Part shown: positions 11,674 to 35,917 of the stretch, in pieces | How positions within the stretch are numbered: the first letter of the stretch is position 1 | How the letters are laid out: every line of letters begins with the position of its first letter | DNA from: Nakamurella flavida | GTDB taxonomy: Bacteria > Actinomycetota > Actinomycetes > Mycobacteriales > Nakamurellaceae | DNA length: 64,000 bases | NCBI RefSeq assembly: GCF_030811475.1 | Contig: NZ_JAUSQV010000001.1 | Span: 310,001-374,000 of the forward strand | Direction of reading: 5' to 3' | Position numbers and translations under genes: made by a program | Notes under the pieces: generated by a model | The model's input: the letters and a program-made list of their open reading frames with translations, nothing else | Told to the model about the DNA's origin: nothing | Database searches by the model: none

Positions 11674-11675
11674 AG

Positions 11676-11873: not shown

Positions 11874-12734
11874 TCAGCCCGAGGCGGCCAGCAGCTCGTC
11901 GATGCGATCGAGCACCCAGGTGGGCCGGACCGACGAGGCGGCCAGCATGGGCAACGTGGTCTCCCCGGTGAGCACCAGCGCCGAGTCCATGCCCGCGGCG
12001 ATGCCCATCGCGATGTCGGTGCTGAGCCGGTCGCCCACCATGACGCACTGCTCGGGGGCCAGCCCGATGCGGTTCATCGCGGTCCGGACCATGAGGCTGT
12101 CCGGTTTCCCGGCGTTCACCGAGCACCGCACCCCGGTGCACGCCTCGATCGCGGCCACGATGGCCCCGGCGTCGGGCTCCCCCCGGCCTCCGGGGAACGG
12201 GCAGAACACGTCGGGATTGGTGGTCACCAGCACGGCCCGCTTGTGGAAGGCCAGAGCGTCGTAGGCGATCTGCAGCTTGCGGTAGTCGAAGCCCCGGTCG
12301 TAGCTCGCCACCACCACGTCGATCTCCGCCGGGTCCTCGCTGAGCTCCAGGCCGGCCGCGGCGATGGCCGACTTCAGGGGCTGCTCGCCGATGACGAACA
12401 CCTTCTTGCCGGCCGCGTGGTCGGTGAGCCAGGTGGTCATCGTGGACACGGTGTTGAGGATCTCCTCGAGGGAGACCTCGATGCCCAGACCGGTGAGCTT
12501 GTCCACGTACATCTGCGGGTCGCGGGTGGGGTTGTTGGACAGGAACACGATCCGCGACCCCTGCTCGCGCAACCCGGTCAGCAGCCGCTGTGCCCCGGGC
12601 AGCAGCTCCGAGCCCAGGTACACCGTGCCGTCGAGATCGAAGATGTACCCGTCGTAGGTCCGGGTGGGGGTCCTGAGCACGGCGTGGTCGCTTCCTGTGG
12701 TGGGTGTCCCGGTGCTGGTCCCGGTGGTGGTCAC
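11874..12734 (-). CDS. HAD-IIA family hydrolase (NagD/AraL-like sugar phosphatase)
   Basis: A 286-residue haloacid dehalogenase-type phosphatase. Motif I is DLDGTVYLG with nucleophile Asp33 and Asp35; motif II is FLSNNPTR, and the motif III/IV regions are GKPDSL and MVGDRLSTDI. These match the C2-cap NagD/AraL subfamily, which removes phosphate from small sugar phosphates. The GTG start overlaps the upstream kinase stop by four bases. It is the last gene of the long catabolic locus. In Bacillus subtilis an AraL-type HAD gene adjoins araM, and the same pairing occurs here, so it may clear toxic or excess phospho-intermediates. Confidence 0.85.
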   Translation of the reverse strand: MTTTGTSTGTPTTGSDHAVLRTPTRTYDGYIFDLDGTVYLGSELLPGAQRLLTGLREQGSRIVFLSNNPTRDPQMYVDKLTGLGIEVSLEEILNTVSTMTTWLTDHAAGKKVFVIGEQPLKSAIAAAGLELSEDPAEIDVVVASYDRGFDYRKLQIAYDALAFHKRAVLVTTNPDVFCPFPGGRGEPDAGAIVAAIEACTGVRCSVNAGKPDSLMVRTAMNRIGLAPEQCVMVGDRLSTDIAMGIAAGMDSALVLTGETTLPMLAASSVRPTWVLDRIDELLAASG

Positions 12735-14242
12735 TGGGCGGCCGCCAGCGCGCCGAACAGATCACGCAGGGCGGGGTACATCTGCCGGTAGACCTCGTAC
12801 AGCCGGTCGTAGGCCCCGACGTGGGTGTGGTCGGGGTCGAACGCCCGGCCGGTGCCCGTCATCTCGGCGGCCGCGGTCTCCACGGAGGGGTGGATGCCGA
12901 CGGCGGCCGCGGCCAGCACCCCGGCGCCCAGGCAGGTGCTCTCGTACTCGCTGACCACCTCGACCCGGCGCTGCATGACGTCGGCGAGGATCTGGCACCA
13001 GATGCGGCTCCGCGACCCGCCGCCCAGGGCGACGATGCGGGTGACCTGGTCGCCCAGGGCCTCCTCGGCCCCCGTGGTGAGGAACCGCTGCTCGAAGGCC
13101 AGGGACTCCAGGATCGCCCGGTACACGTGTCCCTTGCCGTGCACCCCGGTCAACCCGATGAGCGCGCCGCGGGCGTGGTGGTCCCAGTAGGGGGTGAGCG
13201 CGCCCGTCCAGTACGGCAGGGCGATCAGCCCGTCGCTGCCCGGCGGGAGCATGTCGGCCGCGGCCTCCAGGACCTGCTCGGGGGACAGGTCCAACCCGAG
13301 CATCTGGGTGTTCACTCCGGCGAACTTCTCCACGAACCAGCGGATGTTGTAGGTGCCGCCGCCGATGAACGTCTCCAGCGTGTAACCCCCGGCGATCCCG
13401 GCGGCCAGCGTCCGGAAGCGCACGTCGCTGGCATAGGTGCGGCTGAAGGTGCCGGAGACGATCCCGGTGCCCAGGTTGAGGTAGGCCGTCCCGGGGGCGG
13501 TGATGCCGCAGCCGAGCTGGGCCGCCTGGCCGTCTCCGAGGCCGGCGATGACGGGCAGTCCGGCCGGCAGGCCGGTCTGCCGCGCGGCGGCCTCGGTGAT
13601 GGTGCCCAGCTGCTCACCCGGTGCGTGCAGCGTCGGGAAGGCCTCGCGCCCCAGGCCCACGGTGGCCAGCAGCTCGTCGGAGTAGTCGAAGGTGCTCAGA
13701 TCGACCACGCCCAGCGGGTCGGCGCTGGCCCAGCTGGTGCGGAACTCGCCGGTGAGCCGGTGGATCAGGAAGCCGCCCACGTCGACGACCATCGCCGTGT
13801 GCTGCACCGTCTCCGGTTCGTGGGTGGCCAGCCACAGCAGCTTGTACCAGGCCGGGGTCGGGTTCGGCGGCTTGCCGGTGATCCGGTGGACCTCCGCGGT
13901 GCCGTACTTCTGCACCTCCTCGGTCGCCCGGGTGTCCGCCCAGACCATCGCCGGTCGGAGCGGCATGCCGGCGCGATCCAGGCAGGCGAAGGTCTCCCGC
14001 TGGTGGGTGATCGCGATGGCCGAGATGCGTTCCCGGTCGACGGTCTGCACGGCCCGGCGGATGGCCTGCTGGGTGGCCGTCCACCAGTCCTCCGGGTTCT
14101 GCTCGGCCCAGGTCGACCGGGGGTGGCTCAGGTCGAACTCGGCCCGCCCCTGGGACAGGGCGATCCCGGTCGGTCCCCAGACCACGGCCTTGGCCGCGGT
14201 GGTCGAGCAGTCCACCCCGATGACCAGGTCACCGCGCGGCAC
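12731..14242 (-). CDS. FGGY-family carbohydrate kinase
   Basis: A 503-residue sugar or polyol kinase. It has the N-terminal phosphate loop GVDCSTTAAKAVVW, the substrate-side blocks AITHQRETFACLD and MVWADTRAT, the catalytic Asp in VIAGLGDGQAAQ, and the C-terminal ALGGGSRSRIWCQILADVMQ. The GTG start is 14 bases inside the end of the AraM-like gene, so translation is coupled. It belongs to the same locus as a second, glycerol-kinase-like FGGY enzyme, so the two probably phosphorylate different intermediates or substrates. The sugar cannot be assigned from sequence. Confidence 0.85.
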   Translation of the reverse strand: MPRGDLVIGVDCSTTAAKAVVWGPTGIALSQGRAEFDLSHPRSTWAEQNPEDWWTATQQAIRRAVQTVDRERISAIAITHQRETFACLDRAGMPLRPAMVWADTRATEEVQKYGTAEVHRITGKPPNPTPAWYKLLWLATHEPETVQHTAMVVDVGGFLIHRLTGEFRTSWASADPLGVVDLSTFDYSDELLATVGLGREAFPTLHAPGEQLGTITEAAARQTGLPAGLPVIAGLGDGQAAQLGCGITAPGTAYLNLGTGIVSGTFSRTYASDVRFRTLAAGIAGGYTLETFIGGGTYNIRWFVEKFAGVNTQMLGLDLSPEQVLEAAADMLPPGSDGLIALPYWTGALTPYWDHHARGALIGLTGVHGKGHVYRAILESLAFEQRFLTTGAEEALGDQVTRIVALGGGSRSRIWCQILADVMQRRVEVVSEYESTCLGAGVLAAAAVGIHPSVETAAAEMTGTGRAFDPDHTHVGAYDRLYEVYRQMYPALRDLFGALAAAQ

Positions 14243-15794
14243 GGTCGGCCTCCGCTCCGGCCACGGCCCGCTCGGCGGCCTCGAGGACCGCGGCGATGTC
14301 GGAGTCCTCCCACCAGCCGAGGGCGATGAGCAGATCGATCGCGGTCAACCGGTTGCGCATGTAGGCGCAGTTGGTGACGGCCCACACGCCGTGGTCGGCG
14401 TCGCCCACCGAACCCAGCTCGGTCAACCGGGCCGGGGCGCCGGCGGCGACGAGGGCGGTGGCCAACCGGTCGGGGGTGCGGACCAGCGGACGCAGGCGCT
14501 CGGCGGCCGCCGGCCACCCGGTCAGCAGAGCGGCCAGCTGTTCCCGGAGGCCGTCGAGGGCGGCGGCCTTCTTCCCGTAGTCCGACCAGCACTCGCCGCC
14601 GATCGCGCCGCTGGGGTCGACCGCGGAGAACGCGTCCCGCACGGTGTTCTGCGACGCGGTGAGGGGGCCGGTGCGGACCCGCTCGGTCAGCGCGTCGAGG
14701 TCGGCGTCCGCGAGCCGGTCGAACAGCAGCTGCCAGGTGGCGGCCGCGACGACCCCGGCCGCGCCGACCTGGGCCCCGTGCAGGCCGATGGGCCGGTGAG
14801 CCGCCCCGTTGGACAGGTCCAGCATGTGGCTGATCAGGTGTTCGACCCCGGACAGGCAGGCGGTCCCGCCGGAGACGCCGGTGGCGATGCCCCGAACGGC
14901 CAGGGCGCGGGCCAGCCGACCGGTGGCCTGCGGGTCGGTGTCCAGGGCGACCGACCAGTCGTCGATGTCCCGGGCGGCCTCGTCGAGGATCAGCACCGGC
15001 GCGCGGTGGAACGAGGTGTCGGTCCCGACCAGGGCCGCCAGCAACCAGTCGGCGGGGGCGGTGAACATCGAGGTGAACTCGCCGAACCCGGCGATCTTCA
15101 TAGCCCGGGGGGCCTCGTGGACGGTGTCCACGTCGGCCAGCACGATGTCCGGCCACCGGGTGGGGGTGGTGCGCTTGACCCCGTTGCGCAGCAGCACGGA
15201 GACGTCGTCGGTGAAACCGTCCACCGACGCGGCCGTCTGCACCACCACCAGCGGGACCCCGGCGGAGGCGGAGGCGACCTTGCCGATGTCGGTGATGGTG
15301 CCGCCGCCGATGCTCACCACGGCGTCGGCCCCGGCGACCGCCGTCCGGGCGTCCTCGAGCACGGGCTCGGAGGCGTGCAGCTCGGAATGGCCGTCGTCCA
15401 GGACGACCTCGCGGACCGAGTACCGCTCGGCCAGCAGGCGGGAGATCTCCGGCTTGATCGCCTCGCCCCGGCGGCGGATGACCGTCCCGTCCATGAGCAG
15501 GGCGACGGTCCGGGGGTCCTGCCCGGCTGCGGAGTCGCCCAGCAGGCCCTGCACGGCGTCCGGGACGGTCGACCAGTCCAGGGAGCCGATGTGCACGGCC
15601 CGGATCCCGCAACGGGGCAGGGTGCCCTCCGGGTCCGCGTCGGCCACCACCCGGCGGGCCACGACCACCGGATCCTCCGTGGTCCCAGGGGTGGACGTCG
15701 TGGCCTTCGGCACCCCTGCGGCTGCGGCGGCGGCCCGACGGCGGGCGAGCGGGTTCTGGACCGACGGCTGGGTCGGCTGGTTCTGCACGGACAC
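14229..15794 (-). CDS. AraM-like sn-glycerol-1-phosphate dehydrogenase family protein
   Basis: A 521-residue member of the iron-containing alcohol dehydrogenase/dehydroquinate synthase fold. The NAD-binding motif is GGGTITDIGK (residues 163-172), followed by VQTAASVDGF, the substrate face SGVEHLISHM (about 315-324) and GLHGAQVGAA (His339), all characteristic of EgsA/AraM enzymes that interconvert DHAP and glycerol-1-phosphate. The usual metal-ligand Asp of the GFGD motif appears here as Glu239 (GFGEF). The first ~45 residues are a loose leader, and the C-terminus is longer than in typical AraM. The GTG start has a GAGGAG ribosome binding site six bases upstream. It could reduce or oxidise a different phospho-polyol in this locus. 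Confidence 0.8.
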   Translation of the reverse strand: MSVQNQPTQPSVQNPLARRRAAAAAAGVPKATTSTPGTTEDPVVVARRVVADADPEGTLPRCGIRAVHIGSLDWSTVPDAVQGLLGDSAAGQDPRTVALLMDGTVIRRRGEAIKPEISRLLAERYSVREVVLDDGHSELHASEPVLEDARTAVAGADAVVSIGGGTITDIGKVASASAGVPLVVVQTAASVDGFTDDVSVLLRNGVKRTTPTRWPDIVLADVDTVHEAPRAMKIAGFGEFTSMFTAPADWLLAALVGTDTSFHRAPVLILDEAARDIDDWSVALDTDPQATGRLARALAVRGIATGVSGGTACLSGVEHLISHMLDLSNGAAHRPIGLHGAQVGAAGVVAAATWQLLFDRLADADLDALTERVRTGPLTASQNTVRDAFSAVDPSGAIGGECWSDYGKKAAALDGLREQLAALLTGWPAAAERLRPLVRTPDRLATALVAAGAPARLTELGSVGDADHGVWAVTNCAYMRNRLTAIDLLIALGWWEDSDIAAVLEAAERAVAGAEADRAAR

Positions 15795-15820
15795 TGCGCA
15801 CTCCTCGTCGAGCGGATGGA

Positions 15821-16648
15821 TCAGGATCGGGGGCGGAACGGATCCGGGGGCCGGGTGCCGCCGCGGTCCGGCGGGGGATCGTCCGCCGGGGGCAACGCTG
15901 CGGGTCGCAGCCCGGTGGCGGTGCCGAGCGTGGCCAGCAGGGCGGCCTGCATGTCCTCGACCGACCCGACGAATCCGAGATCGGCTGCTGCACCCACGCT
16001 CTCGGGATCGCAGTGCAGGCCGAGAGCAGGATAGACCGCCCCGATGACGGCACGCAGCGGGGCGGCATCGGCGACGACGATGCTCCCGCCGAGCAGCAGG
16101 GCCCCCCGGACCCGCCGGCCCGCGGTGCCGATCAGCTTGACCCTGCCGCCGCCGTTCACGCTGTACCGCCCCGGGCAGTACTCGTCCGGCACGGGACCGA
16201 CGCGGGCGTCCACCCCCCGCCCGCGCAGCACCGCGGCCAGCACCTCGCCGAGGGCGGCCAACCGGGCGACCGCGTCCGCGCCCCGGTCCGGCACGACCAG
16301 GTCGAAGCACAGGGTGGAGCGGTGGTAGGCCGCGGCCCGACCACCGGGCGCGCGCATCGCGGACTGGAAACCCTGGTCGGCGGCGATCGCCACCGCGTCG
16401 GCGAAGCCCGGTTCCCGGGCGTCCCGCCGGCTGAAGCCGACGGTGGGGGCGGGGGAGTACAGCCGCAGCCAACCCGCCCCGTCGCCCGCGGCGACATGGG
16501 TGAGCAGGGTCGGGCCGACGGCGAGATCTGCTGCCGCGGAGGTCATCTCGGACCCGGCGGCGACCCGGAGTTCGGGGGCGCCACCGAGCAGGACGGCGAG
16601 CTGTTCGCGCAGCGCCGTCCCCGATCCGACCTCCGCGGTCACGGTCAC
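15821..16648 (-). CDS. Lipoate--protein ligase family protein (LplA/LipB/BPL fold)
   Basis: A 275-residue protein of the lipoyl/biotin ligase fold. Recognisable blocks are MRAPGGRAAAYH (substrate-binding RxxGG), PDEYCPGRYSVN and GGRVKLIGTAGRR, whose Lys is the conserved catalytic lysine. The C-terminal ~40 residues are Pro-rich. It overlaps the E2 gene by four bases (GTGA). Placed inside an operon that encodes a free lipoyl protein and E1/E2 subunits, it most likely attaches or transfers lipoate or octanoate to that lipoyl domain. Whether it uses free lipoate or acts as an amidotransferase is not decidable here. Confidence 0.82.
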   Translation of the reverse strand: MTVTAEVGSGTALREQLAVLLGGAPELRVAAGSEMTSAAADLAVGPTLLTHVAAGDGAGWLRLYSPAPTVGFSRRDAREPGFADAVAIAADQGFQSAMRAPGGRAAAYHRSTLCFDLVVPDRGADAVARLAALGEVLAAVLRGRGVDARVGPVPDEYCPGRYSVNGGGRVKLIGTAGRRVRGALLLGGSIVVADAAPLRAVIGAVYPALGLHCDPESVGAAADLGFVGSVEDMQAALLATLGTATGLRPAALPPADDPPPDRGGTRPPDPFRPRS

Positions 16649-17367
16649 GCCGGGGAATCCGCCGACGGGTCGCCGTCCTCCATGGCCCGACGGATCGCGC
16701 TGAGCAGGGCGGCGCCACTGGCACCGTCCACGGCCCGGTGGTCGCAGGTCAGGGTGAAGGCGGCCAGCGGCCGCACCGCGACCTCCCCGTCCCGGACCAC
16801 CGGCGTCGGCACGGTGCTGCCGACGGCCAGGATGGCGATCTGCGGGGGGTTGAGGATGGCGTCGAAGCGGTCGATGCCGAGCATGCCCAGGTTGGACACG
16901 GTGAAGGTGCCCCCGCTGACATCGGCCATGCCCAGCTTGCCGGCCCGGGCCCGGGTGACCACGTCCTTGCGCTTGCCGGCGATGGTGGCCAGATCCGCGC
17001 CCTGCAGATCGGTGAGCACCGGGACGGTGAGCCCCTTCTCGGTGGCCACGGCCAGCCCGATGTTGACCCGCTGGAACGTGGTGATCACGTTGTCGGCGAA
17101 GTGGGCGTTCAGCGCCGGGGTGGCCACCAGCGCGGTGGCGCAGGCCTGCAGGATCGCATCGGTGACCGTGCCGCCGAGGGACTTCAGGTCCGCGGACAGC
17201 ACCCGGGTCATGTCGACGTCGACCCCGAGGTGGAAGACCGGGGCGGCCCAGGCCTCGACCATGCGGCGGGCGGCGACCTTGCGCATGCCGGCCAGGGGCT
17301 TGGCCACCCCGTCCGGGGCGGCGTCGGCGGTGGTCGCGGTGTCGATGCCACCGGCGGCGGCGGTCAT
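16645..17367 (-). CDS. 2-oxoacid dehydrogenase E2 catalytic domain without lipoyl domain
   Basis: A 240-residue acyltransferase core. The start region has GMRKVAARRM and the catalytic block is TLTCDHRAVDGASGA, with the active-site His and Asp of the HxxxDG motif. SNLGMLGIDRFDAILNPPQ is the classic E2 core segment. There is no N-terminal lipoyl or subunit-binding domain, although E2 proteins are normally 400 residues or longer. The lipoyl function is supplied by the separate 81-residue protein in the same locus. Start and stop codons overlap those of both neighbours by four bases. It should form the oligomeric acyl-CoA-forming core of the complex. Confidence 0.88.
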   Translation of the reverse strand: MTAAAGGIDTATTADAAPDGVAKPLAGMRKVAARRMVEAWAAPVFHLGVDVDMTRVLSADLKSLGGTVTDAILQACATALVATPALNAHFADNVITTFQRVNIGLAVATEKGLTVPVLTDLQGADLATIAGKRKDVVTRARAGKLGMADVSGGTFTVSNLGMLGIDRFDAILNPPQIAILAVGSTVPTPVVRDGEVAVRPLAAFTLTCDHRAVDGASGAALLSAIRRAMEDGDPSADSPA

Positions 17368-18230
17368 CGGACGGCCGCCTTCAGGGCGGTCGCGGTGCCG
17401 GCGCTGCCCATGGCCTCGAACTTGGCCACGGTGGCGTCGATCATCCGCACGCGGCCCGCGTCCAGGACCTCCTCCAGCTGCAGGTCGCCCTGGGACCAGG
17501 CGTCCTCCAGTCCGGCGCGGAAGGCGTGCCGCAGATCGGTGTCGCCGTTCATCTTGTGCACGCCGTGGGCGACGGCCTCCTTGATCTCGGCGTCCGGGAC
17601 GCCCGAGATCCCGTGCAGCACCAGGGGGACCGGCACGACCGCGCGGATCCGGTCGATCAGGTCGACGGCCAGCGGTTCCTGCTCCAGGCCGGGGATGACG
17701 CCGTGGACGACACCGGCCGAGATGGCCAGCAGGTCGACACCGGTCTCGGCCACGAAGCGTTCGGCCTCGTGCACGTCGGTGTAGTAGGACGCCCACTCCA
17801 CCGGGGCGCCGACGTCCGGGATCTTGCCCAGTTCGGCCTCGACGGGGATGCCGTAGTCGTGGCACAGCTCGACCACGCGGCGGGTGAGGGCGATGTTCTC
17901 CTCGAACGGCAGGTGGGCGGCGTCGAACATGATGGAGTCGAAGCCGAGGCGGACCGCCTCCAGCACCTCGTCCCAGGTGCCGTGATCCAGGTGGATGGCG
18001 TAGAGCGCGTCGGTCTCCCGGGCGTTGCGCACGGTCAGCTCGAAAGCCTTCTTCACGCCCATGTGCGGGATGATCGCCCGCCCGACCTGCATGAAGATCG
18101 GCGCATCGGCCTTCTCGGCGGCCTGCAGCAGGGCCTGGGTGGTCTCGTCGTTGTGCATGTTGAACCCGCCGAGGGCGTAGCCGCCCGATCGGGCGGCTTC
18201 GACCCAGCGGAGCGGTTGGGGGTCGCGCAT
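17364..18230 (-). CDS. Class II fructose/tagatose-bisphosphate aldolase family protein
   Basis: A 288-residue zinc aldolase of the FbaA/GatY/KbaY family, which cleaves ketose phosphates to DHAP and an aldehyde. Zinc and substrate residues are visible in AIHLDHGTW, SIMFDAAHLPFEENI, AISAGVVHG and VLHGISGVP. The last differs from the usual LHGGSG phosphate-binding loop by Gly to Ile. A GAGGAAG ribosome binding site precedes the ATG. It lies between the glycerol-kinase-like gene and the E2 core. It probably cleaves the phosphorylated, oxidised substrate of this pathway rather than fructose-1,6-bisphosphate itself. Confidence 0.85.
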   Translation of the reverse strand: MRDPQPLRWVEAARSGGYALGGFNMHNDETTQALLQAAEKADAPIFMQVGRAIIPHMGVKKAFELTVRNARETDALYAIHLDHGTWDEVLEAVRLGFDSIMFDAAHLPFEENIALTRRVVELCHDYGIPVEAELGKIPDVGAPVEWASYYTDVHEAERFVAETGVDLLAISAGVVHGVIPGLEQEPLAVDLIDRIRAVVPVPLVLHGISGVPDAEIKEAVAHGVHKMNGDTDLRHAFRAGLEDAWSQGDLQLEEVLDAGRVRMIDATVAKFEAMGSAGTATALKAAVR

Positions 18231-18324
18231 GACGCACTTCCTCTTCTCGGCGGTGGTGCCGGAGATGTGGGGGATGGGGACGGCGGACGGCCGGGTGGGC
18301 CGGCATGTCGGGAGAGCCGGGAGG

Positions 18325-21637: not shown

Positions 21638-21883
21638 TCAGTCGGTGGTCTCGATGACGGCCACCGGGGTGCGGACCTCGACGGTCTCGTCCTCGGCGAC
21701 CAGGATCTCCACCAGCGTTCCCGCGGCCGGCGACTCCAGGGTCTCCTCCACCTTCTCGGCCTCCACCTCGGCCAACGGCTCGTCCTCGGCGACGGTGTCA
21801 CCGACGGCCTTGAGCCAGCTGGTGATGGTGCCCTCGCTCATGCCCATGCCCCACTGCGGGAGCAGGACCTCCACTCGTGCCAT
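21638..21883 (-). CDS. Stand-alone lipoyl (biotinyl/lipoyl-attachment) domain protein
   Basis: Only 81 residues, consisting of a single lipoyl domain: LLPQWGMGMSEGTITSW at the start, and the modification loop VEAEKVEETL with the lipoylated Lys44. In most bacteria this domain is fused to the E2 core; here the core is encoded about 4 kb further along the locus. It lies 88 bases after E1 beta and is presumably the mobile acyl carrier between E1 and E2. The ATG has weak upstream purines (GAGGAGACACGAC). Confidence 0.88.
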   Translation of the reverse strand: MARVEVLLPQWGMGMSEGTITSWLKAVGDTVAEDEPLAEVEAEKVEETLESPAAGTLVEILVAEDETVEVRTPVAVIETTD

Positions 21884-21971
21884 GTCGTGTCTCCTCGTCA
21901 GGTGGATCGGTTGTGGATGCGGTCGTGGTGTCGGGTGCCGTCCCCGCTGGGGACGGCGGGATGGTGCGGGG

Positions 21972-23084
21972 TCAGCGCGCCGAGCCGGTGGCCAGCTCCT
22001 CGCGGTCGGCGCCCGGGGTGGCCACGCTGCCACCCCGACCGCCGTTCCCGGCGGCGCCGTTCGCGCCGGCGGCATCGGGGGCGATGACGCCCAGGGAGGC
22101 CCGGACCGCGTCCGCGATGGCGATGCGGTTCGGGTACAGCTGCTTCTCCAGCGCGGGGCTGAACGGGATCTGGATGTCCGGGGTGGTGATCCGACGGACC
22201 GGGGCCCGGAGCGAGTCGAAGACGTGCTCGGACACCAGGGCCGAGATCTCCGCGGCGGCACCACAGGTCCGGTGGGCCGGGTCGGCTACGACGACGCGGC
22301 CGGTCTTCGCCGCGGCGGTCAGGATGCCCTCGACGTCCAGCGGGACGAGCGTGCGCGGATCGAACACCTCGACCGAGATGCCCTCCTTCGCCAGGGTGTC
22401 GGCCGCGGCGACCGCCTCGGGAACGGCGCCGGACACGGCGATGACGGTGGCGTCGGTGCCGGTGCGCACGGAGCGACCGACCCCGAACGGGATCTTGTAC
22501 TCGTTCTCGTCGACCTCCTCCTTGCTGCCCCACAGCACGCAGGCCTCGAAGATCAACACCGGGTCGTCGCTGTCCACGGCGGTGCGGAGCAGGCCCTTGG
22601 CATCGCTCGGGTACGCGGGGGTGACGATCTTCAGGCCGGGCACGTTCATGAACATGGGGTACGGCCGGTCGGAGTGGTGCGCGCCGGTGCTCAGCCCGTA
22701 GAACATCGCCGAGCGGAACACCACGGGGACGCTGGCCTGGCCGCCGAACATGTAGCGGTTCTTGGCCGCCTGGTTCACGAACTGGTCCATCGCCATGTAC
22801 AGGAAGCTGGAATAGGACAGGTCGACGATCGGCCGCAGCCCGGTCATCGCGGCACCGACCGCGGCGCCCACGATCACCTCCTCGGAGATGGGGGTGTTGC
22901 GGATGCGGTTGCGGCCGAACTGCTGCAGGAAGTCACCCTCCGACGCCCGGGACTTCCCGGCCCCGCCGGTGGTGCCGTAGACGTTGGCCTCGACGTCCTC
23001 CCCGATGATGACGACCCGGTCGTCGGCCAGCATGGCCTCCTTCTGGGCGGCGCCGATCGCGCCGAGGTAGCTCATGACGGTCAT
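21972..23084 (-). CDS. 2-oxoacid/acetoin dehydrogenase E1 component, beta subunit
   Basis: A 370-residue transketolase-like subunit. Conserved blocks are VVIIGEDVEANVYG, RIRNTPISEEVIVGAAVGAAM with the TPP-activating Glu, VVFRSAMFYG, and the C-terminal FDPRTLVPLD segment. The last ~35 residues are a Gly/Ala-rich extension. Its ATG overlaps the alpha subunit stop by four bases, ensuring paired synthesis. The unusually long GAHHSDRPYPMF loop resembles acetoin dehydrogenase (AcoB) and branched-chain types as much as pyruvate dehydrogenase. The actual 2-oxo substrate is unknown. Confidence 0.9.
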   Translation of the reverse strand: MTVMSYLGAIGAAQKEAMLADDRVVIIGEDVEANVYGTTGGAGKSRASEGDFLQQFGRNRIRNTPISEEVIVGAAVGAAMTGLRPIVDLSYSSFLYMAMDQFVNQAAKNRYMFGGQASVPVVFRSAMFYGLSTGAHHSDRPYPMFMNVPGLKIVTPAYPSDAKGLLRTAVDSDDPVLIFEACVLWGSKEEVDENEYKIPFGVGRSVRTGTDATVIAVSGAVPEAVAAADTLAKEGISVEVFDPRTLVPLDVEGILTAAAKTGRVVVADPAHRTCGAAAEISALVSEHVFDSLRAPVRRITTPDIQIPFSPALEKQLYPNRIAIADAVRASLGVIAPDAAGANGAAGNGGRGGSVATPGADREELATGSAR

Positions 23085-24145
23085 CGCACGTTCTCCAGGG
23101 TGCCGAAGGTGGACTGGTCGTTCCAGGTGTGCACCGCGAACTTCGAGTCGGTGTACAGGTCGTCGAAGGCGACGGAGGGATCGGGGTAGGGGCTGTCGTT
23201 GGTGAAGGCGAAGGCCTCGTCGACCTCGCGCAGCACGTCGGCCTCCAGGGCGTCCATCTCCTCGGCGGTGGCCACACCGCGCTCGATGAGCACCGCGCGG
23301 AACAGCACGATGGGGTCCTTGGCCAGCCAGTCGGCCTTCTCGTCGGTGTCGCGGTAGTCCACGCCGAGCTTGAGACCCTCGGAGTGCTCGTTGAAGCGGT
23401 AGGTCACCACCTCGACGAGGGAGGGACCCTCACCGGCGCGGGCCCGCTGCACGGCGGTGGCGACCGCGTCGAAGACGGCGAGCACGTCCTGGCCGTTCTC
23501 CACCCGCACACCGGGCATGCCGAAACCGGCGGCCCGGTCGGCGATCACGCCGGAGGTGACGGTGTGGGCCGGGGTGGACAGCGCGTACTGGTTGTTCTCG
23601 CACAGGAAGATGACCGGCAGCTTCCAGACGCCGGAGATGTTCATGCCCTCGTAGAGGCAGCCCTGGTTGGCGGCGCCGTCACCGAAGAAGGCCAGCGACA
23701 CCCGGCCGTTGTCCAGGACCTTGGAGGACAGGCCGGCGCCGACGGCGATCGGGATGGAGCTGCCGACGATGCCGGACTCGCCGAGACTGCCGACAGCGAA
23801 GTCGGCCAGGTGCAGGGAGCCGCCCTTGCCGCCGCACACTCCGCCGGACTTGCCGACGAGCTCGGCCATCAGCGGGCCCAGCGGGGCGCCCTTGCCGATG
23901 GGGTGACCGTGGCTGCGGTGGTTCCCGCTCATGTAGTCGCTGTCGCCGAGGGCCATGCAGGCACCGACGACCTGGGCCTCCTGGCCGATGCTGGTGTGCA
24001 CGGTGCCGGGGATCTGGCCCCGCTTCACCATCTTGGAGGCGCGCTCGTCGAACCGCCGGATGCGCAGCATCCGCCGCTGCATCTCGACCAGCGTGTCGTT
24101 CGAGAGTGCATCCGTGAGTGCGGATGTCGTGACTTCTGTCGTCAC
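23081..24145 (-). CDS. 2-oxoacid/acetoin dehydrogenase E1 component, alpha subunit
   Basis: A 354-residue thiamine diphosphate-dependent subunit. The TPP motif runs from FFGDGAANQG to the CENNQYAL block. SGNHRSHGHPIGKG and GGKGGSLHLAD are typical of AcoA/PdhA proteins, and YRFNEHSEG is the late phosphorylation-loop region. The GTG start was chosen at the first Val before the conserved region; an AGAAGG stretch lies upstream. With E1 beta it forms the decarboxylating or diketone-cleaving enzyme that loads the separate lipoyl protein. No E3 dihydrolipoamide dehydrogenase gene is present in the locus, so a housekeeping E3 must be shared. Confidence 0.9.
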   Translation of the reverse strand: MTTEVTTSALTDALSNDTLVEMQRRMLRIRRFDERASKMVKRGQIPGTVHTSIGQEAQVVGACMALGDSDYMSGNHRSHGHPIGKGAPLGPLMAELVGKSGGVCGGKGGSLHLADFAVGSLGESGIVGSSIPIAVGAGLSSKVLDNGRVSLAFFGDGAANQGCLYEGMNISGVWKLPVIFLCENNQYALSTPAHTVTSGVIADRAAGFGMPGVRVENGQDVLAVFDAVATAVQRARAGEGPSLVEVVTYRFNEHSEGLKLGVDYRDTDEKADWLAKDPIVLFRAVLIERGVATAEEMDALEADVLREVDEAFAFTNDSPYPDPSVAFDDLYTDSKFAVHTWNDQSTFGTLENVR

Positions 24146-24222
24146 CTTCGTGACCCTTCTTGGTGGGGAGGTTCGGCCGGGTGGGGTGGACCGGGGACGG
24201 CCCGGGCCGGCGGGTGGGGATT

Positions 24223-25239
24223 TCAGGCCGCGCGCAGGCGGTTCCCGGCCCGGTCGGTCAGCACGGCGGCCAGGATGACCGCACCGATGACCACCTGCTG
24301 CAGGTTCGGGTTGACGTGCAGCAGGGACAGACCGTTGTTGAGCACGCCGATGATGAGCAGACCGATGAACGTGCCGCCCATCGAGCCCACGCCGCCGGAC
24401 AGGCTGGCACCGCCGATGACGACGACGGCGATGACGTTGAGCAGGTAGCCCGCGCCGGCCGTCGGCTGTGCCGAGTCCAGCAGGGAGATGTTGACCCAGC
24501 CGGCGACCGCGGCCAGCCCGCCGGCGATGATGTAGACGCGGGTCTTGGCCCAGCGGACGGGGAGCCCGGAGAGGCGCGCGGCCTGCTCGTTGCCGCCGAT
24601 GGCGTAGAGCGCCCGGCCACCGGGACGGTAGCGCAGCCACATGCCGATGAGCAGGTAGATCACCACGAGCAGGATCCCCTGCACGGGAACCGATCCGAGC
24701 ACGTTGGACGTGAGGTTGCTGAACCAGGACGGGAACCCGTTGATCGTGTTGCCCTTGGTGATGAACAGCGCCATGCCCGCGCACGCCGACATGGTGGCCA
24801 GGGTGGCGGCGAACGCCTGGACCTTGCCGTAGGAGGTGAGCGCCCCGTTGAGCAGCCCGACGGCCATCCCGAGCAGCAACCCCAGGATCATCGCCACCGG
24901 CCACGGCACCTCGATGACCTGGAACAGCCAGGCGCTGAACATCATGGTCAGGGCCAGGTTCGCGGCCACCGACAGATCGATGCCGCCGATGAGGATGACC
25001 AGGGTGGCCCCGGCGGCCATGATCCCGATGTCGGAGACCTGCGCGATGATGTTGCTCAGGTTGCGCGAGGTGAGGAAGAACGGCGACAGGAACGACATCG
25101 CCACGACCATCACGACGAGGCCGACCACGGGGCCGCCGAGGTTGCGGAGCCGGGTGAGCAGTTTGCTGCCCACGCCGACGGACGGCAGCGGGTCCGTCAC
25201 CGGTGAATCGGGCGACTTCTGAGGCTGGGTGGTGGTCAC
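24223..25239 (-). CDS. Ribose-type ABC transporter permease (RbsC-like)
   Basis: A 338-residue inner-membrane permease with 8-10 hydrophobic segments. Signature regions are GATLVILIGGIDLSVAA (about residue 79), YAIGGNEQAARLSG in the cytoplasmic coupling loop, and VIAVVVIGGASLSGGVGSMGGT. These are hallmarks of the branched sugar permease family. The GTG has an AAAGGAG site upstream. It belongs with the ATPase and binding protein genes before it and forms the entry point of the catabolic locus. Confidence 0.92.
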   Translation of the reverse strand: MTTTQPQKSPDSPVTDPLPSVGVGSKLLTRLRNLGGPVVGLVVMVVAMSFLSPFFLTSRNLSNIIAQVSDIGIMAAGATLVILIGGIDLSVAANLALTMMFSAWLFQVIEVPWPVAMILGLLLGMAVGLLNGALTSYGKVQAFAATLATMSACAGMALFITKGNTINGFPSWFSNLTSNVLGSVPVQGILLVVIYLLIGMWLRYRPGGRALYAIGGNEQAARLSGLPVRWAKTRVYIIAGGLAAVAGWVNISLLDSAQPTAGAGYLLNVIAVVVIGGASLSGGVGSMGGTFIGLLIIGVLNNGLSLLHVNPNLQQVVIGAVILAAVLTDRAGNRLRAA

Positions 25240-25342
25240 GGCCGGTCGAGCTCCTTTGCTCCGTGCGTCCAGGTTGGGGCGGTCTGCGGGATGGGCGGGG
25301 TGGTGGTGGTCCGCCTGCGGGCGGGCGGGGTGATCGGACGGG

Positions 25343-26860
25343 TCACTGCTGGCCGGTGGGAACGGCGAGCTGCATGACCGTCTCGGCGTCGGCATCCGCG
25401 CGGGGCAGGATGCCCCGTTGCCGCCCGCCGGACATCACCATGACGCGGTGCGAGAGGCCCAGCACCTCCTCGAGTTCCGAGGAGACGACGACCACGGCGA
25501 CCCCACGGGCGGCACAGTCGCGGATGATCTCGTAGATCGCCATCTTCGCGCCCACGTCCACCCCGCGGGTGGGCTCGTCCAGGATGAGCACGGTGGGCTC
25601 GTGGACCAGCCATTTGGCCAGCAGGACCTTCTGCTGGTTGCCGCCGGACAGCCGGACCACGGGCAGGTCCATCGACCCGCGGATGTCGAAGTCGGCGCGG
25701 CTCTTGGCCGCGGCCCTGTTCAGCAGACGATTGGTGATGAACCGGCCGCGGCCCATCTCCCGCTCCCAGGGCTGCAGGATGTTCACCGCGCTGGACAGCC
25801 CCAGGTTCAATCCCTGGCCCTTGCGGTCCTCCGGGACCATGACCACGCCGGCGGCGATGGCCGCGGCCGGGGAGTCCAGGCGGACGGGTCGGCCCTCGAG
25901 GAGCACCTCGCCCTCGTCGTAGCGGTCCGCTCCGGCGATGGTGCGCACCATCTCGGTGCGGCCGGCGCCGACGAGGCCGGCCACACCGAGGATCTCGCCA
26001 CGCGAGACGGTGAAGTCGACACCGGAGAAGACGCCCTTGCGGCCCAGGCCGCGGACCTCCAGGACGACGTCCTCGCGGTGCGGCTCGGGAGCCTGGTGTT
26101 CGAAGGTGAACTCCCGGCCGACCATCGCCGACACCATCTCCGGGGCCGGGACGTTCCCGCGGTCCCAGTTCTTCACCAGGGCGCCGTCGCGCAGGCAGAT
26201 GATCTGCGAGCTGACGTCACGGACCTCCTCCAGGCGGTGGGAGATGTAGACGACGCCCACCCCGTGCTCGGCCATGCGGCGGATCTGGTCGAGGACCCGG
26301 TCGGTCTCGTGCCCGGTCAGCGAGGCGGACGGCTCGTCGAAGATGACGTACTTCGGCCCGCGGGAGATCGCCTTGGCGATCTCGATGCTCTGCTGCACGG
26401 CCATGGACAGGCCGACGACCGACCGGCGCGGGTCGAGGTCGATCCCGAGCAGGTCCAACACCTCGCGGGACTGGCGGACCATCGATCCGGTGTCCACCTT
26501 GCCGCCGCGGACGGGGAGGCGCCCCAGGAAGATGTTCTCCGCCACCGAGAGCGACGGCACCATCCGGATCTCCTGGTGGATCAGGGCCACGCCCCGATCC
26601 AGCGCGTCCGACGGCGATGTCGGCGCGTAGCTCTCCCCGTCCAGCGTCATCTCACCCGACGTCGGCAGGACGACGCCGGCGATCATCGAGCTGAGGGTGG
26701 ACTTGCCGGCTCCGTTCTCCCCGATCAGGCCGACGACGGCGCCGGCCGGGATGGCGAAGTCGACACCCTTGACGACCTCGATGCCCGCGTAGGACTTCCG
26801 GAGCGCGGAGCCGGTGAGTGCCCGCCCTCCGGGGCCGGGTGCAGGTACGTCGTCGGACAT
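25343..26860 (-). CDS. Sugar ABC transporter ATP-binding protein (RbsA/MglA-like)
   Basis: A 505-residue duplicated ATPase. The first nucleotide-binding domain has Walker A GENGAGKST (about residue 48) and Walker B VIFDEPSASLTG. The second has the family's degenerate Walker A-like GLVGAGRTE, the signature RLSGGNQQKV, and Walker B LILDEPTRGVDVGAK with its catalytic Glu intact. It energises uptake by the adjacent permease. The ATG begins 63 bases after the binding-protein stop codon. Confidence 0.93.
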   Translation of the reverse strand: MSDDVPAPGPGGRALTGSALRKSYAGIEVVKGVDFAIPAGAVVGLIGENGAGKSTLSSMIAGVVLPTSGEMTLDGESYAPTSPSDALDRGVALIHQEIRMVPSLSVAENIFLGRLPVRGGKVDTGSMVRQSREVLDLLGIDLDPRRSVVGLSMAVQQSIEIAKAISRGPKYVIFDEPSASLTGHETDRVLDQIRRMAEHGVGVVYISHRLEEVRDVSSQIICLRDGALVKNWDRGNVPAPEMVSAMVGREFTFEHQAPEPHREDVVLEVRGLGRKGVFSGVDFTVSRGEILGVAGLVGAGRTEMVRTIAGADRYDEGEVLLEGRPVRLDSPAAAIAAGVVMVPEDRKGQGLNLGLSSAVNILQPWEREMGRGRFITNRLLNRAAAKSRADFDIRGSMDLPVVRLSGGNQQKVLLAKWLVHEPTVLILDEPTRGVDVGAKMAIYEIIRDCAARGVAVVVVSSELEEVLGLSHRVMVMSGGRQRGILPRADADAETVMQLAVPTGQQ

Positions 26861-26923
26861 GCGGGTCTCCGTTCTGGCTGGCAGGTGAGGGGCGGTGGCG
26901 GGCTGGACGGGAGAACGCCGGTG

Positions 26924-27943
26924 CTACTTGACGTTCGGGCCGTAGAACTGCACCGGGTCGATGGTCGCCGCGTTGTCCTGGGTGACCAGCACGGTGTCCT
27001 GGTACTGCTCGGCCGGGACGGTGCCGCCGCCGAGGATGGTCAGTGCGTCCTTGATCGACTGCTGGCCCATGACGTAGGGCACCTGCGCCTGGGTGGCGTT
27101 GGTCAACTTGTCCTCGATCGCGGTGATCATGGTCGGGAAGCCGTCGATGCCCACGGTGTAGATCGTCCGGCCGGCGTCCTTGGCGGCCTTGGCCGCACCC
27201 ATGGCCATGGCGTCGCTCTCGCCGAAGATGGCCTTGATGTCCGGGTTGGCCTGCAGCATGTTCTGCGCGGCCTTGTAGCCCTCGGTCTCGTCCCAGTTGG
27301 CGGACTGCTTGGCGACCACGGAGATTCCGGGGTTCTTGTCGAGCGCCTGCTGGCAGCCCTGGCTGCGCTGCAGCTCGGCGGTGGCACCGAGAACGCCCTG
27401 CAGGATGCCGATCTCGCCGGAGCCGCCCATCTGCTCGAACATCCAGGTGCAGAGCGCGTCGGCGGCCTTCACGCTGTCCGTGGCGATGTAGGTGGCGAGC
27501 TTGCCGTCGCCACTCTCCGGCTTCTGGTCGACGGCGATGACGGGGATGTCGGCCTTGTTGGCGGCCCGCACGCCGGCAGCGGCGGAGGTGGCGTCCTGCG
27601 CGATGAAGACGATGGCGTTGACCTGCTGGGTGATCAGGTCGTTGACCTGGTTGACCTGCTGGGTGGAGTTGTTGTCCGCCGAGAGCACGACGGTCTTCAC
27701 GCCCGCCTCCTCCGCGGCCTTCTTCATGCCGTCGACCGCGGCGATGTAGAAGAGCGACTTCTGGTCGGCGACCGAGATGCCGATCGTGTAGTCCGAACTC
27801 GCGCCGCCGGCACTGGCGGCGCTGCTCGCACCGCCCGAGGTCCCGGCGGATCCCGCACTGTCCGACCCGCCGCAGGCGGTCAGGGTCAGTACTCCCGCCA
27901 TGCCCAACGCCGCGACGATGCGGGTGCGCTTCCAGGCTGCCAT
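26924..27943 (-). CDS. Ribose-type ABC transporter substrate-binding lipoprotein
   Basis: A 339-residue periplasmic-binding-protein-fold lipoprotein. The signal ends in the lipobox LTAC (Cys24), followed by a Gly/Ser-rich linker. The mature part follows the RbsB/sugar-binding pattern: IGISVADQKSLFYIAAVDGM, NDLITQQVNAIVFIAQDA, GESDAMAMGAAKAAKDAG. It is the first gene of the long operon, directly downstream of the double operator, and should define substrate specificity. Ligand residues cannot be assigned by eye. Confidence 0.92.
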   Translation of the reverse strand: MAAWKRTRIVAALGMAGVLTLTACGGSDSAGSAGTSGGASSAASAGGASSDYTIGISVADQKSLFYIAAVDGMKKAAEEAGVKTVVLSADNNSTQQVNQVNDLITQQVNAIVFIAQDATSAAAGVRAANKADIPVIAVDQKPESGDGKLATYIATDSVKAADALCTWMFEQMGGSGEIGILQGVLGATAELQRSQGCQQALDKNPGISVVAKQSANWDETEGYKAAQNMLQANPDIKAIFGESDAMAMGAAKAAKDAGRTIYTVGIDGFPTMITAIEDKLTNATQAQVPYVMGQQSIKDALTILGGGTVPAEQYQDTVLVTQDNAATIDPVQFYGPNVK

Positions 27944-27991
27944 TGCCTTCTCCTCGGGTCGTGCCGACGTCGACGTCGGCCCTTGTTCGAA

Positions 27992-28066
27992 TAAATATTG
28001 ACTAGTAGCATCAATACCCCCGGAGCCTAAGGCTGCGTCATTATGCTGTCAACGAGTGAATATTTA
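27992..28066. promoter_or_regulatory. Paired inverted operator sites in the divergent SorC/ABC promoter
   Basis: TAAATATTGACTAGT at 27992-28006 and, on the other strand, TAAATATTCACTCGT at 28066-28052 match at 13 of 15 bases and face each other across 45 bases. A second symmetric element, TATTGA and TCAATA with nine bases between (27996-28016), overlaps the first site. This AT-rich block lies between the SorC-type regulator and the binding-protein gene, and is the probable autoregulatory and operon control site. Confidence 0.6.
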
Positions 28067-28210
28067 CCCCGCAGAGCCGCTGGCCGGGAGGGAAAGATCC
28101 CACCGGAGACACCCGTGGTGCGGGAAACTCACCGGGACGGCACGCCGGGGGAGCACCGTCACGACGGGGAAGGGGAGGGTCAGCATGACGCGCACAGGAG
28201 AACGATCGCC

Positions 28211-29191
28211 GTGGTGAAGGCGCCGCCCGCACCCAGTGCCCGACGACTGATCGCCACGGTCGCCTGGCTGTACCACACCCGGGGCCTGCGGCAGAACGCC
28301 ATCGCCGAACGGCTGAACATCTCGCAGTCCCGGGTGTCCCGCCTCCTGGAGCAGGCGGTCGGCCTGGACATCGTCCGCACCACGGTCGTGCTGCCGGCGG
28401 ACGAGCAGTCGGTGCTGGAACGGGAACTCGAGACCGCGTACGACCTGCGCAGCGCGCACGTGTACGACATCGGCGAGGTGCTCGACGAGACCCAGCTCGT
28501 CCGCGAACTCGGCCAGTTGCTGGCCCTGCAGCTGCAGACCACCCCGCTGGACGCCGAGGTCATCGGGTTCACCCCCTGGAGCCGGACGCTGCAGGAGGCG
28601 GTGCGCAATCTGCAGCCGCTGCGCAACTCCGGGACCCGGTACGTCGTGGAGATGCTGGGGGATCTCGGTCCGCCGGCCCAGCAGCATCTCGCCGCGCAGA
28701 ACACCCAGCAGCTGGCCACCCTCACCGGCGGCGAGCCGCTGTACCTGCGGCTGCCCGGGGTGCTGCCGAACCGGGAGGTCAAGGAGACGCTGCTGGCCCA
28801 CGACAGCCACGCCCGGGAGACCCTGGCCAAGCTGGACTCCATCGATCTGGCGCTCACCGGGTTCGGATCCGGCGACATCGTGCCGCCGCTGCGGGCCGGC
28901 GACAACTTCTTCACCGCCGACCAGGTCGCCCGGGTCAAGAAGCTCGGCGCCGTCGGCGAGGTCAACCTGCGGTACATCTGCGAGGACGGCACCCCCGTGG
29001 CCAACGAACTCGACGAACTGGTGGTCGGGGCCACCCTGGCCCAGCTGCGCCGGGCCGAGCGGCGGCTCGGGGTCGGCGGGGGTCCCTCGAAGTACGCCGC
29101 CGTGCGGGCCGCCCTCCTCGGGGGCTGGATCAACGTCCTGGTCACCGATTCGACCACCGCGCAGTGGCTGCTGGACAACCGCACGCGCTGA
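28211..29191 (+). CDS. SorC/DeoR-type sugar-binding transcriptional regulator
   Basis: A 326-residue regulator. The N-terminal helix-turn-helix contains LRQNAIAERLNISQSRVSRLLEQA (positions about 26-49). It is followed by the SorC-type sugar-binding domain with its extended IGFTPWSRTLQEAVRNL block and the C-terminal GGPSKYAAVRAALLGGWINV segment. The GTG at 28211 was chosen because AGGAG precedes it by ten bases; the frame is open further upstream but lacks coding character there. It is divergent from the long catabolic operon and presumably responds to a phosphorylated intermediate made by one of its kinases. EryD, which controls erythritol operons, belongs to the same family. Confidence 0.88.
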   Translation: MVKAPPAPSARRLIATVAWLYHTRGLRQNAIAERLNISQSRVSRLLEQAVGLDIVRTTVVLPADEQSVLERELETAYDLRSAHVYDIGEVLDETQLVRELGQLLALQLQTTPLDAEVIGFTPWSRTLQEAVRNLQPLRNSGTRYVVEMLGDLGPPAQQHLAAQNTQQLATLTGGEPLYLRLPGVLPNREVKETLLAHDSHARETLAKLDSIDLALTGFGSGDIVPPLRAGDNFFTADQVARVKKLGAVGEVNLRYICEDGTPVANELDELVVGATLAQLRRAERRLGVGGGPSKYAAVRAALLGGWINVLVTDSTTAQWLLDNRTR

Positions 29192-35851: not shown

Positions 35852-35917
35852 CGAGACTCCTTTGTCCAATGTCGGGGAGGAGGGACCGTTCCCCAGGGTG
35901 GCAGGCCGCGAATGATT

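What the first reader, a model, noticed from the sequence alone, without database searches (positions are those of the whole stretch)
11874..29191. A large, apparently single-purpose catabolic locus with its own importer, lipoate-dependent complex and three phosphate-handling enzymes
Eleven enzyme genes and three importer genes run on one strand with mostly coupled starts, facing a SorC-type regulator. The set (two FGGY kinases, GlpD-like and AraM-like dehydrogenases, class II aldolase, HAD phosphatase, E1/E2 dehydrogenase parts and a lipoate ligase) does not match any complete named pathway I know. EryA/EryB/EryD-type logic (kinase, GlpD-like enzyme, SorC regulator) covers only part of it. 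Inference: a polyol or branched sugar is phosphorylated and oxidised, then cleaved to DHAP and a fragment that the TPP/lipoate complex turns into an acyl-CoA.
Basis: partly seen in the sequence, partly recalled or inferred. Interest (0 to 1): 0.82.

Follow-up and report, generated by a model that had tools for sequence, protein, structure and literature searches.

The report
Large polyol-type catabolic regulon, substrate unknown
An actinobacterium carries a block of about 22 genes, with close relatives in distant bacteria and apparently under one switch, that looks built to import an unusual sugar alcohol or ketose and break it down with a complex resembling the one that cleaves acetoin.

Summary
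Window 11874-29191 holds 14 minus-strand genes plus a divergent SorC-type regulator. The unit runs on to 38336, adding a second sugar importer, an M20 dipeptidase, an epoxide hydrolase and a DUF849/BKACE-like enzyme. In 22 loci (window included; Actinomycetota and three Alphaproteobacteria) order and strand are shuffled but most of the genes stay together. A palindrome, TGAAT-N4-ATTCA, recurs before the shuffled operons in 14 of 22 loci (32 sites; permuted half-sites 2 or fewer); it was not found in the other 8. In the window's genome its core TGAATATTYA occurs at two places only, the two operon promoters. The TPP/lipoate complex is acetoin-dehydrogenase-like by E1-beta tree (moderate support), with a detached lipoyl carrier and an E2 lacking lipoyl and E3-binding domains. 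The best reading: kinase, GlpD-type oxidation and aldolase give DHAP, and an acetoin-type cleavage gives an acyl-CoA, probably acetyl-CoA. The substrate is not identified. Related operons join an E1/E2 complex of unresolved placement to a DXR-like reductoisomerase, so methyl-branched or 1-deoxy sugars are the best guess. Nothing biochemical was shown.

The parts
11874..12734 (-). HAD-IIA phosphatase (phosphoglycolate phosphatase-like); catalytic-type Asp33/Asp35/Lys210/Asp235 in 16 of 16 orthologues
12731..14242 (-). FGGY kinase, XylB-like (289.7 bits, cut-off 380)
14229..15794 (-). AraM-like dehydrogenase (521 aa); AlphaFold model closest to B. subtilis AraM, a Ni-dependent glycerol-1-phosphate dehydrogenase (9h4x)
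15821..16648 (-). LplA/LipM-like lipoyl or octanoyl transferase; Cys158 and Lys171 in 13 of 13 orthologues
16645..17367 (-). E2 acyltransferase catalytic domain alone (no lipoyl, no E3-binding domain found)
17364..18230 (-). class II FBA/KbaY-type zinc aldolase
18325..19824 (-). FGGY kinase, GlpK-like; Phe136 (17 of 17 orthologues) where glycerol kinase 2dpn has Tyr
19821..21491 (-). GlpD-like FAD dehydrogenase of a polyol phosphate
21638..21883 (-). stand-alone lipoyl carrier protein, 81 aa, Lys44 in 22 of 22 loci
21972..23075 (-). E1-beta (TPP), acetoin-dehydrogenase-like
23081..24145 (-). E1-alpha (TPP)
24223..25239 (-). importer 1 permease (RbsC-like)
25343..26860 (-). importer 1 ATPase (RbsA/AraG-like)
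26924..27943 (-). importer 1 binding protein (RbsB-like, pocket arginines lost)
27988..28066 (.). divergent promoter region: TGAATATTTA at 28057-28066 (operator-like); weaker sites ATTGA-N9-TCAAT at 27997-28015 and TGAAT-N4-ATTCA with 2 mismatches at 27988 (a match of that quality is at chance level in the window)
28184..29191 (+). SorC/DeoR-type regulator (start re-called)
29298..30761 (-). M20 peptidase, beta-Ala-His dipeptidase subfamily (415 bits, cut-off 344)
30875..31936 (-). importer 2 permease
31933..33507 (-). importer 2 ATPase
33504..34643 (-). importer 2 permease
34706..35965 (-). importer 2 binding protein
36101..37348 (-). epoxide hydrolase (EHN family); orthologues 79-93% identical, next homologues 44% or less
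37389..38336 (-). DUF849/BKACE-like enzyme, catalytic Arg changed to Lys and catalytic Asp missing (start re-called)
38447..38456 (.). operator core TGAATATTCA upstream of the BKACE-EH-importer 2-M20 operon

Best explanation
One regulon of two operons around a SorC-type regulator gene takes up two related polyols or ketoses and degrades them. Step 1: two CUT2 importers bring the substrates in. Step 2: the GlpK-like kinase phosphorylates a terminal hydroxyl. Step 3: the GlpD-like flavoenzyme oxidises the neighbouring carbon to a ketone. Step 4: the FBA-type zinc aldolase releases DHAP. Step 5: an acetoin-dehydrogenase-type complex (E1-alpha-beta, free lipoyl carrier, E2 core, E3 from elsewhere) cleaves an alpha-hydroxyketone intermediate to an acyl-CoA, most likely acetyl-CoA, and an aldehyde. 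AraM, XylB and HAD form an entry branch that kinases, reduces or oxidises, and dephosphorylates a stereo- or redox-variant into the main line. EH, M20 and the BKACE-like enzyme prepare or finish the part of the molecule that is not polyol. Shown here: gene content, conservation, co-travel, a shared palindrome, family placement, kept or altered active-site residues. Inferred: every reaction, their order, the end products, and that the SorC-type protein binds the palindrome.
For: Gene content. Co-travel in 22 loci (window included) across shuffled orders and two phyla. Whole genomes, BKACE-like at E 1e-60 or better: 12 of 34 genomes (74% identity or more), all 12 with the core E1-beta, 0 of 13 without it; in the genus exactly the 5 of 17 with the core (Fisher p 1.6e-4). 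Epoxide hydrolase 79-93% in 16 of 34, own included, 15 of them with the core; the other homologues at E 1e-60 are 44% or less. Palindrome: 32 sites in 14 of 22 loci against 2 or fewer for the 29 other orderings of the half-site, 34 outside genes against 2 in 431,883 gene bases; its core at only two places in the own genome. E1-beta groups with acetoin E1-beta (support 91/83), apart from PDH and BCKDH-like rows. Lipoate supply genes recur: LplA in 13 of 22 loci; lpd in G413, G415, G417; lipA beside the Shinella locus. Paralogous loci repeat SorC + FGGY + GlpD + E1/lipoyl (L044, L112).
Against: No substrate, expression or enzyme data. The E1-alpha tree does not resolve acetoin, DRL and core groups, and the E1-beta sister grouping is not starred. 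The palindrome was found in the same gaps in which it was then counted, so that count is not independent; it was not found in 8 of 22 loci (G421, G422, G423, G005, G008, G069, L046, L045), which include all three alphaproteobacteria and both Rubrobacter loci. In the window alone the 14-base pattern at up to 2 mismatches has 3 hits against 2.2 in shuffles. Exact TGAATATTYA is absent from G005, G008 and G009, which have the core, and present in G003, G007 and G014, which lack it. GlpK is missing beside the core in the three alphaproteobacterial loci, where another FGGY (28-29% to XylB) sits next to SorC. BKACE-like is absent from 9 of 21 core genomes and EH from 6 of 21, so neither is indispensable. 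M20, EH and BKACE have no clear place in a polyol route.
Confidence: 0.5

Rival explanations
1. The substrate is a methyl-branched or 1-deoxy C5 compound (methyltetritol, deoxypentitol, deoxyxylulose), and the complex splits a 1-deoxyketose phosphate into acetyl-CoA and an aldose phosphate, so that DHAP (C3) plus acetyl-CoA (C2) account for all five carbons.
For: E1-beta is acetoin-like. Related operons put an E1/E2 complex with SorC and a DXR-like reductoisomerase (DRL): PTS glucitol-type EII + EI + DRL + E1/E2 in L042; DRL + fused E1 + E2 + GlpD-like + FGGY next to the core in L112, a Rubrobacter by genus code; DRL + E1 + E2 + lpd, with a divergent GlpD-like gene, about 20 kb from the core on the Shinella plasmid. 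A mutant PDH E1 raises DXP in E. coli (PMC3424233, section 13), so this chemistry is open to such enzymes. Binding protein 1 has lost both ribose-contacting arginines, one to Leu/Ile/Val in 10 of 13 (contact residues recalled).
Against: The core has no DRL. The DRL-linked E1 forms its own branch, unresolved against acetoin and PDH, so it is not shown to be acetoin-like. The role of the aldolase is awkward: retro-aldol of a 3-keto methyltetritol phosphate would release formaldehyde. The DRL relatives here may be DLO-type enzymes; the four DLO proteins tested did not replace DXR (PMC3847144, passages).
Confidence: 0.2
2. Two or three pathways that merely share a regulator: importer 1/AraM/XylB/HAD for one sugar, core for another, importer 2/EH/M20/BKACE for a third.
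For: Modules are separable: G008 has core plus importer 2 without AraM/XylB/HAD; G419, G423, G005 and L034 lack importer 2, EH and M20 near the core (L034 is cut by the fetched stretch, and G005 has its EH on another contig). Two SorC genes occur in some loci (L021, G425, G009).
Against: Modules re-associate in new orders in several orders and two phyla instead of drifting apart; where the palindrome occurs it precedes genes of all modules; BKACE-like and EH are nearly confined to core genomes.
Confidence: 0.25
3. The TPP/lipoate complex is an ordinary 2-oxoacid dehydrogenase that handles a 2-oxo acid made late in the pathway.
For: Best named families are PDH E1 models (TIGR03182, PRK09212), both below their cut-offs.
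Against: E1-beta does not group with lipoyl-type PDH E1-beta or BCKDH-like rows; no enzyme in the locus obviously makes a 2-oxo acid.
Confidence: 0.15
4. An oxidative transketolase: the complex takes the two upper carbons of an ordinary ketose phosphate and delivers glycolyl-CoA.
For: Kinases, GlpD and AraM fit ordinary ketoses; E1-beta also matches transketolase models.
Against: Nearest labelled kin cleave a methyl ketone (acetoin); I know of no enzyme that does this (recalled).
Confidence: 0.08

Closest known systems
Erythritol catabolism (EryA/EryB/EryD of Brucella; recalled)
   Same: FGGY kinase, GlpD-like dehydrogenase, SorC-type regulator, CUT2 importer
   Different: no racemase or isomerases (EryC, EryH, EryI) among the genes scanned; aldolase and TPP/lipoate complex instead
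Acetoin dehydrogenase complex (references L060 and L061 beside acetoin reductase)
   Same: E1-beta clade (moderate support), E1-alpha/E1-beta split, need for lipoate
   Different: lipoyl domain on its own 81-aa protein, E2 without E3-binding domain, no acetoin reductase found; kinases, aldolase and importers instead
AI-2 (Lsr) degradation (recalled)
   Same: SorC-type regulator, two-permease importer, FGGY kinase, proposed DHAP + acetyl-CoA ends
   Different: XylB-like kinase far below the LsrK cut-off (191.7 of 528 bits); no LsrF or LsrG hit; TPP/lipoate complex and zinc aldolase instead
DRL-linked complexes (L042, L049, L112)
   Same: SorC + E1 + E2, with a polyol kinase (L112) or PTS (L042)
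   Different: they have DRL and a normal three-domain E2; the core has aldolase, GlpK-like kinase and split E2; their E1 forms a separate branch
Deoxyribonate oxidation with BKACE (PMC6365646, passages)
   Same: a BKACE used in sugar catabolism
   Different: the protein here lacks the catalytic Arg and Asp of Kce

Membership tests
Acetoin dehydrogenase complex | E1-beta in the acetoin clade | tested here: met
   sister to L060/L061, 91/83, not starred; PDH and BCKDH-like rows outside; 95/89 in the tree without PDH rows. E1-alpha unresolved
Acetoin dehydrogenase complex | E2 with lipoyl, E3-binding and catalytic domains | tested here: not met
   E2 matches only PF00198; lipoyl domain on a separate gene
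Acetoin dehydrogenase complex | activity with acetoin | not testable with these tools
   needs purified complex
Erythritol (Ery) pathway | kinase + GlpD-like + SorC-type regulator | tested here: met
Erythritol (Ery) pathway | EryC/EryH/EryI racemase and isomerases | tested here: not met
   no such Pfam domain among the genes scanned
Glycerol kinase GlpK | family score and glycerol-contacting residues (recalled: R, E, Y, D, Q) | tested here: inconclusive
   535 bits over the 498 subfamily cut-off but 518 under the 590 equivalog cut-off; R, E, D, Q kept, Phe at the Tyr position in 17 of 17
Glycerol-1-phosphate dehydrogenase (AraM) | fold | tested here: met
   best match 9h4x, B. subtilis AraM: TM 0.82 by target length, 0.63 by query length
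Glycerol-1-phosphate dehydrogenase (AraM) | equivalog score | tested here: not met
   97 of 413 bits for PRK00843
BKACE (beta-keto acid cleavage) | zinc ligands His, His, Glu (recalled) | tested here: met
   kept in 6 of 6 orthologues with letters there, one gapped row set aside
BKACE (beta-keto acid cleavage) | catalytic Arg and Asp of Kce (recalled) | tested here: not met
   against 2y7d the Arg of HIRCGFED is Lys, and the Asp after the Glu falls in a gap; Lys, and Leu after the Glu, in 6 of 6; 74.7 of 382 bits
Lsr/AI-2 degradation | LsrK, LsrF, LsrG | tested here: not met
   kinases below the LsrK cut-off, no LsrF/LsrG-type hit

The most novel reading that the evidence does not exclude
A new sugar pathway in which a TPP/lipoate complex, rather than an aldolase or thiolase, cuts the carbon chain of a 1-deoxyketose or methyl-branched sugar phosphate oxidatively to acetyl-CoA. 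The DRL-linked operons would be its simplest form: polyol imported as phosphate, reductoisomerase to DXP, complex to acetyl-CoA and glyceraldehyde 3-phosphate, that is, catabolism of the isoprenoid precursor methylerythritol.
Probability: 0.22. Interest if true: 0.85.

Novelty: new variant of a known kind. Interest (0 to 1): 0.62.

Why it matters
If right, it adds a catabolic route for a polyol or ketose that is rare but widely scattered (several actinobacterial families, plasmids of Rubrobacter and Shinella), and it would give a first function to an acetoin-type complex acting on sugar phosphates. The conserved palindrome gives a handle for finding the inducer, which is the missing fact. The DRL-linked operons offer a role for DXR-like oxidoreductases (DLO families) that were uncharacterised in the 2013 family paper (PMC3847144).

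Tried and rejected
Ordinary erythritol pathway: rejected, no racemase/isomerase genes found. AI-2 degradation: rejected, kinase scores and missing LsrF/LsrG. Classical BKACE function for 37389-38336: rejected on residues and score. Acesulfame link of the Shinella plasmid: the strain is known from acesulfame work (PMC11500405, PMC10413263, search listing only), but the locus occurs in many unrelated bacteria. Isoprene-derived epoxydiols/methyltetrols as substrate: the epoxide hydrolase makes it tempting; the paper search listed nothing on their bacterial catabolism and M20 and BKACE do not fit; kept only as a guess within the branched-C5 idea. Literature: the listings showed no paper that appears to describe this gene set or pathway (open-licence library only; narrow term sets); two searches listed papers on the MEP pathway and the DXR-II family. 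Operator search with ATTGA-N-TCAAT met a weaker form of the motif found. DRL loci L063-L065 showed no E1/E2 match and were not followed; L062 has an E1-alpha near its DRL. An order-level survey around the alphaproteobacterial loci was asked for and not accepted; it was not done.

Rows dropped: the 22-locus table (window included) leaves out L021/G412 (no core E1-beta match in that draft genome), L024 and L053/G199 (contigs of 8.4 and 4.6 kb). L023 is taken as the same contig as G005, and L051/G092 as the same record as L045 (equal contig lengths), each counted once. Several loci are cut by contig ends. The trees leave out duplicates and, also the long rows L008 and L009. Identity cut-offs for 'orthologue' were set by me per gene.


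Full report
What is there. The window lies at 310001-374000 of a 4.32 Mb single-contig genome. A same-genus genome, G005, has a contig of 710,306 bases, the length of the Nakamurella endophytica contig behind L023, so the organism is taken to be a Nakamurella or very near it. ORF, codon-bias and profile calls confirm 14 genes on the minus strand from 27943 down to 11874, and a SorC-type regulator on the plus strand. The complex is split in an unusual way: the lipoyl domain is its own 81-aa protein and the E2 is a bare catalytic domain. No E3 was found in the locus; E3-type matches lie elsewhere in the genome.

The unit is larger. Beyond the regulator lies a second minus-strand operon: BKACE-like, epoxide hydrolase, binding protein, permease, ATPase, permease, M20 dipeptidase. 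One scan of named genomes with the GlpD-like protein gave 17 loci; genus, phylum and plasmid searches added more. In 22 loci, window included and several cut by contig ends, the counts are: E1-alpha, E1-beta, lipoyl carrier and aldolase 22; E2, GlpD and XylB 20; AraM 19; GlpK 17; HAD and M20 16; importer 2 genes 14-15; regulator 15; epoxide hydrolase 14; LplA 13; importer 1 genes 12-13; BKACE-like 7 within the stretch. E1-beta and GlpD were the search queries, so their counts are partly by construction. Order and strand differ between genera, which makes the persistence informative.

Specificity. In a spread sample of 396 genomes of the phylum, own included, the core E1-beta (E 1e-100 or better; 63% identity or more) occurs in 4, the BKACE-like protein (E 1e-80) in 3, all among those 4, and the epoxide hydrolase (E 1e-110) in the own genome only. 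Over 34 chosen genomes (E 1e-60), BKACE-like is in 12 of 21 with the core and 0 of 13 without; the epoxide hydrolase (79% or more) in 15 of 21 and 1 of 13, the exception being a draft that carries GlpD, GlpK and regulator genes of the set. Epoxide hydrolase homologues at that limit fall into two groups, 79% or more and 44% or less.

Regulation. Of the seven most enriched 8-mers in the gaps between the genes, six are versions of one word, TGAAT(A/G)A (the seventh looks like a ribosome-binding site). The palindrome is TGAAT-N4-ATTCA: with at most one mismatch, 32 sites in 62.5 kb of short gaps, 14 of 22 loci, while the 29 other orderings of the half-site give at most 2; gene bodies hold 2 in 431,883 bases. 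The motif was found in the same gaps in which it was counted. Sites precede AraM, E1-alpha, EH, both binding proteins, GlpD and BKACE-like in one locus or another. In the window the core TGAATATTCA (one mismatch allowed) is found twice against 0.02 expected, at 28057 and 38447, and the exact TGAATATTYA has no other place in the whole genome. Against this: 8 of 22 loci have no site (G421, G422, G423, G005, G008, G069, L046, L045), in the window the full 14-base pattern at two mismatches is no commoner than in shuffles (3 against 2.2), G005, G008 and G009 have the core but no exact TGAATATTYA, and G003, G007 and G014 have one to three places without the core. That the SorC-type protein binds the site is inferred.

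Enzymes. The E1-beta tree puts the family beside acetoin E1-beta (support 91/83), away from PDH E1-beta with fused lipoyl domain and from BCKDH-like rows; the E1-alpha tree keeps the core together but leaves the order open. 'BCKDH-like' and 'PDH' are labels from architecture and kinship, not tested functions. The GlpK-like protein keeps four of five glycerol-contacting residues (recalled) and has Phe for Tyr in 17 of 17. The aldolase keeps its zinc and catalytic residues (recalled) in 22 of 22. The AraM-like model (mean pLDDT 87) fits Bacillus AraM best. Binding protein 1 has Gln/Glu and a mostly non-polar residue where ribose-binding protein has two arginines (the contact list is recalled; the row labelled N13 is really N12, with N13 replaced by Ser63 by the alignment). 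The BKACE-like protein keeps zinc ligands but has Lys for the catalytic Arg and lacks the catalytic Asp, with Leu after the zinc-binding Glu.

Related systems. In G012 and G014 an E1/E2 follows a DXR-like reductoisomerase (DRL); in G012 a glucitol-type PTS with its own enzyme I and a SorC-type gene stand beside it. These DRL-linked E1 proteins form their own branch, unresolved against acetoin and PDH. In L112, a Rubrobacter by its genus code, an operon of SorC, DRL, fused E1, E2, GlpD-like and FGGY kinase is the next one to the core. On the Shinella plasmid a DRL-E1-E2-lpd operon, with a GlpD-like gene divergent from it, lies about 20 kb from the core. L044 repeats regulator, aldolase, E1, lipoyl, GlpK and GlpD at 28-44% identity with a 72% BKACE-like. 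DRL (DXR-II) makes methylerythritol phosphate from DXP; the related DLO1 and DLO2 families were uncharacterised in 2013 and four members tested did not replace DXR (PMC3847144, passages). A mutant PDH E1 raises DXP in vivo (PMC3424233, section 13). Together these make 1-deoxyketose phosphates an attractive substrate class for such complexes, but they are circumstantial for the window itself.

Mechanism and verdict. The ordered proposal is in Best explanation. Its one-unit part is well supported by gene content and, in 14 of 22 loci, by the palindrome; its chemistry is inference. Novelty is rated as a new variant of a known kind: every part belongs to a known family, but the listings showed no described pathway with this set.

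Noticed in passing
L042, L066, L049, L112: Operons of SorC + DXR-like reductoisomerase (DRL) + E1/E2, with a glucitol-type PTS (L042) or a GlpD-like gene (L049, L112; also FGGY in L112): candidate methylerythritol/deoxyxylulose catabolism. L066 looks like L042 by gene sizes; its PTS was not scanned.
   Followed up: partly
L044 (G008), 4756-13905: Paralogous cluster with regulator, aldolase, E1, lipoyl, GlpK and GlpD at 28-44% and a BKACE-like protein at 72% identity: same logic, probably another substrate.
   Followed up: partly
L047 (Croceicoccus) and L048 (Mesorhizobium) plasmids: Nearest E1-alpha/E1-beta relatives outside the core (about 49-56%) sit among unrelated genes: oxygenase and acyl-CoA genes in L047 (which also has a lipoyl gene), mobile elements in L048.
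   Followed up: no
window 40995-45432, minus strand: Two adjacent ORFs (252 and 1229 aa) with strong codon bias and no Pfam match at E 0.001, beside a lactate/malate dehydrogenase and a 6-phosphogluconolactonase-type gene.
   Followed up: no
window 10165-11673, minus strand: ORF of 502 aa just downstream of the HAD gene with a weak GH5 cellulase match below the curated cut-off; not looked for in relatives.
   Followed up: no
L062 (G006) 5467-8822: A DRL gene beside an iron-containing redox enzyme (Haem_oxygenas_2 family) and a methyltransferase-like gene, 4 kb from an E1-alpha that groups with the DRL-linked ones; possibly a biosynthetic setting.
   Followed up: no
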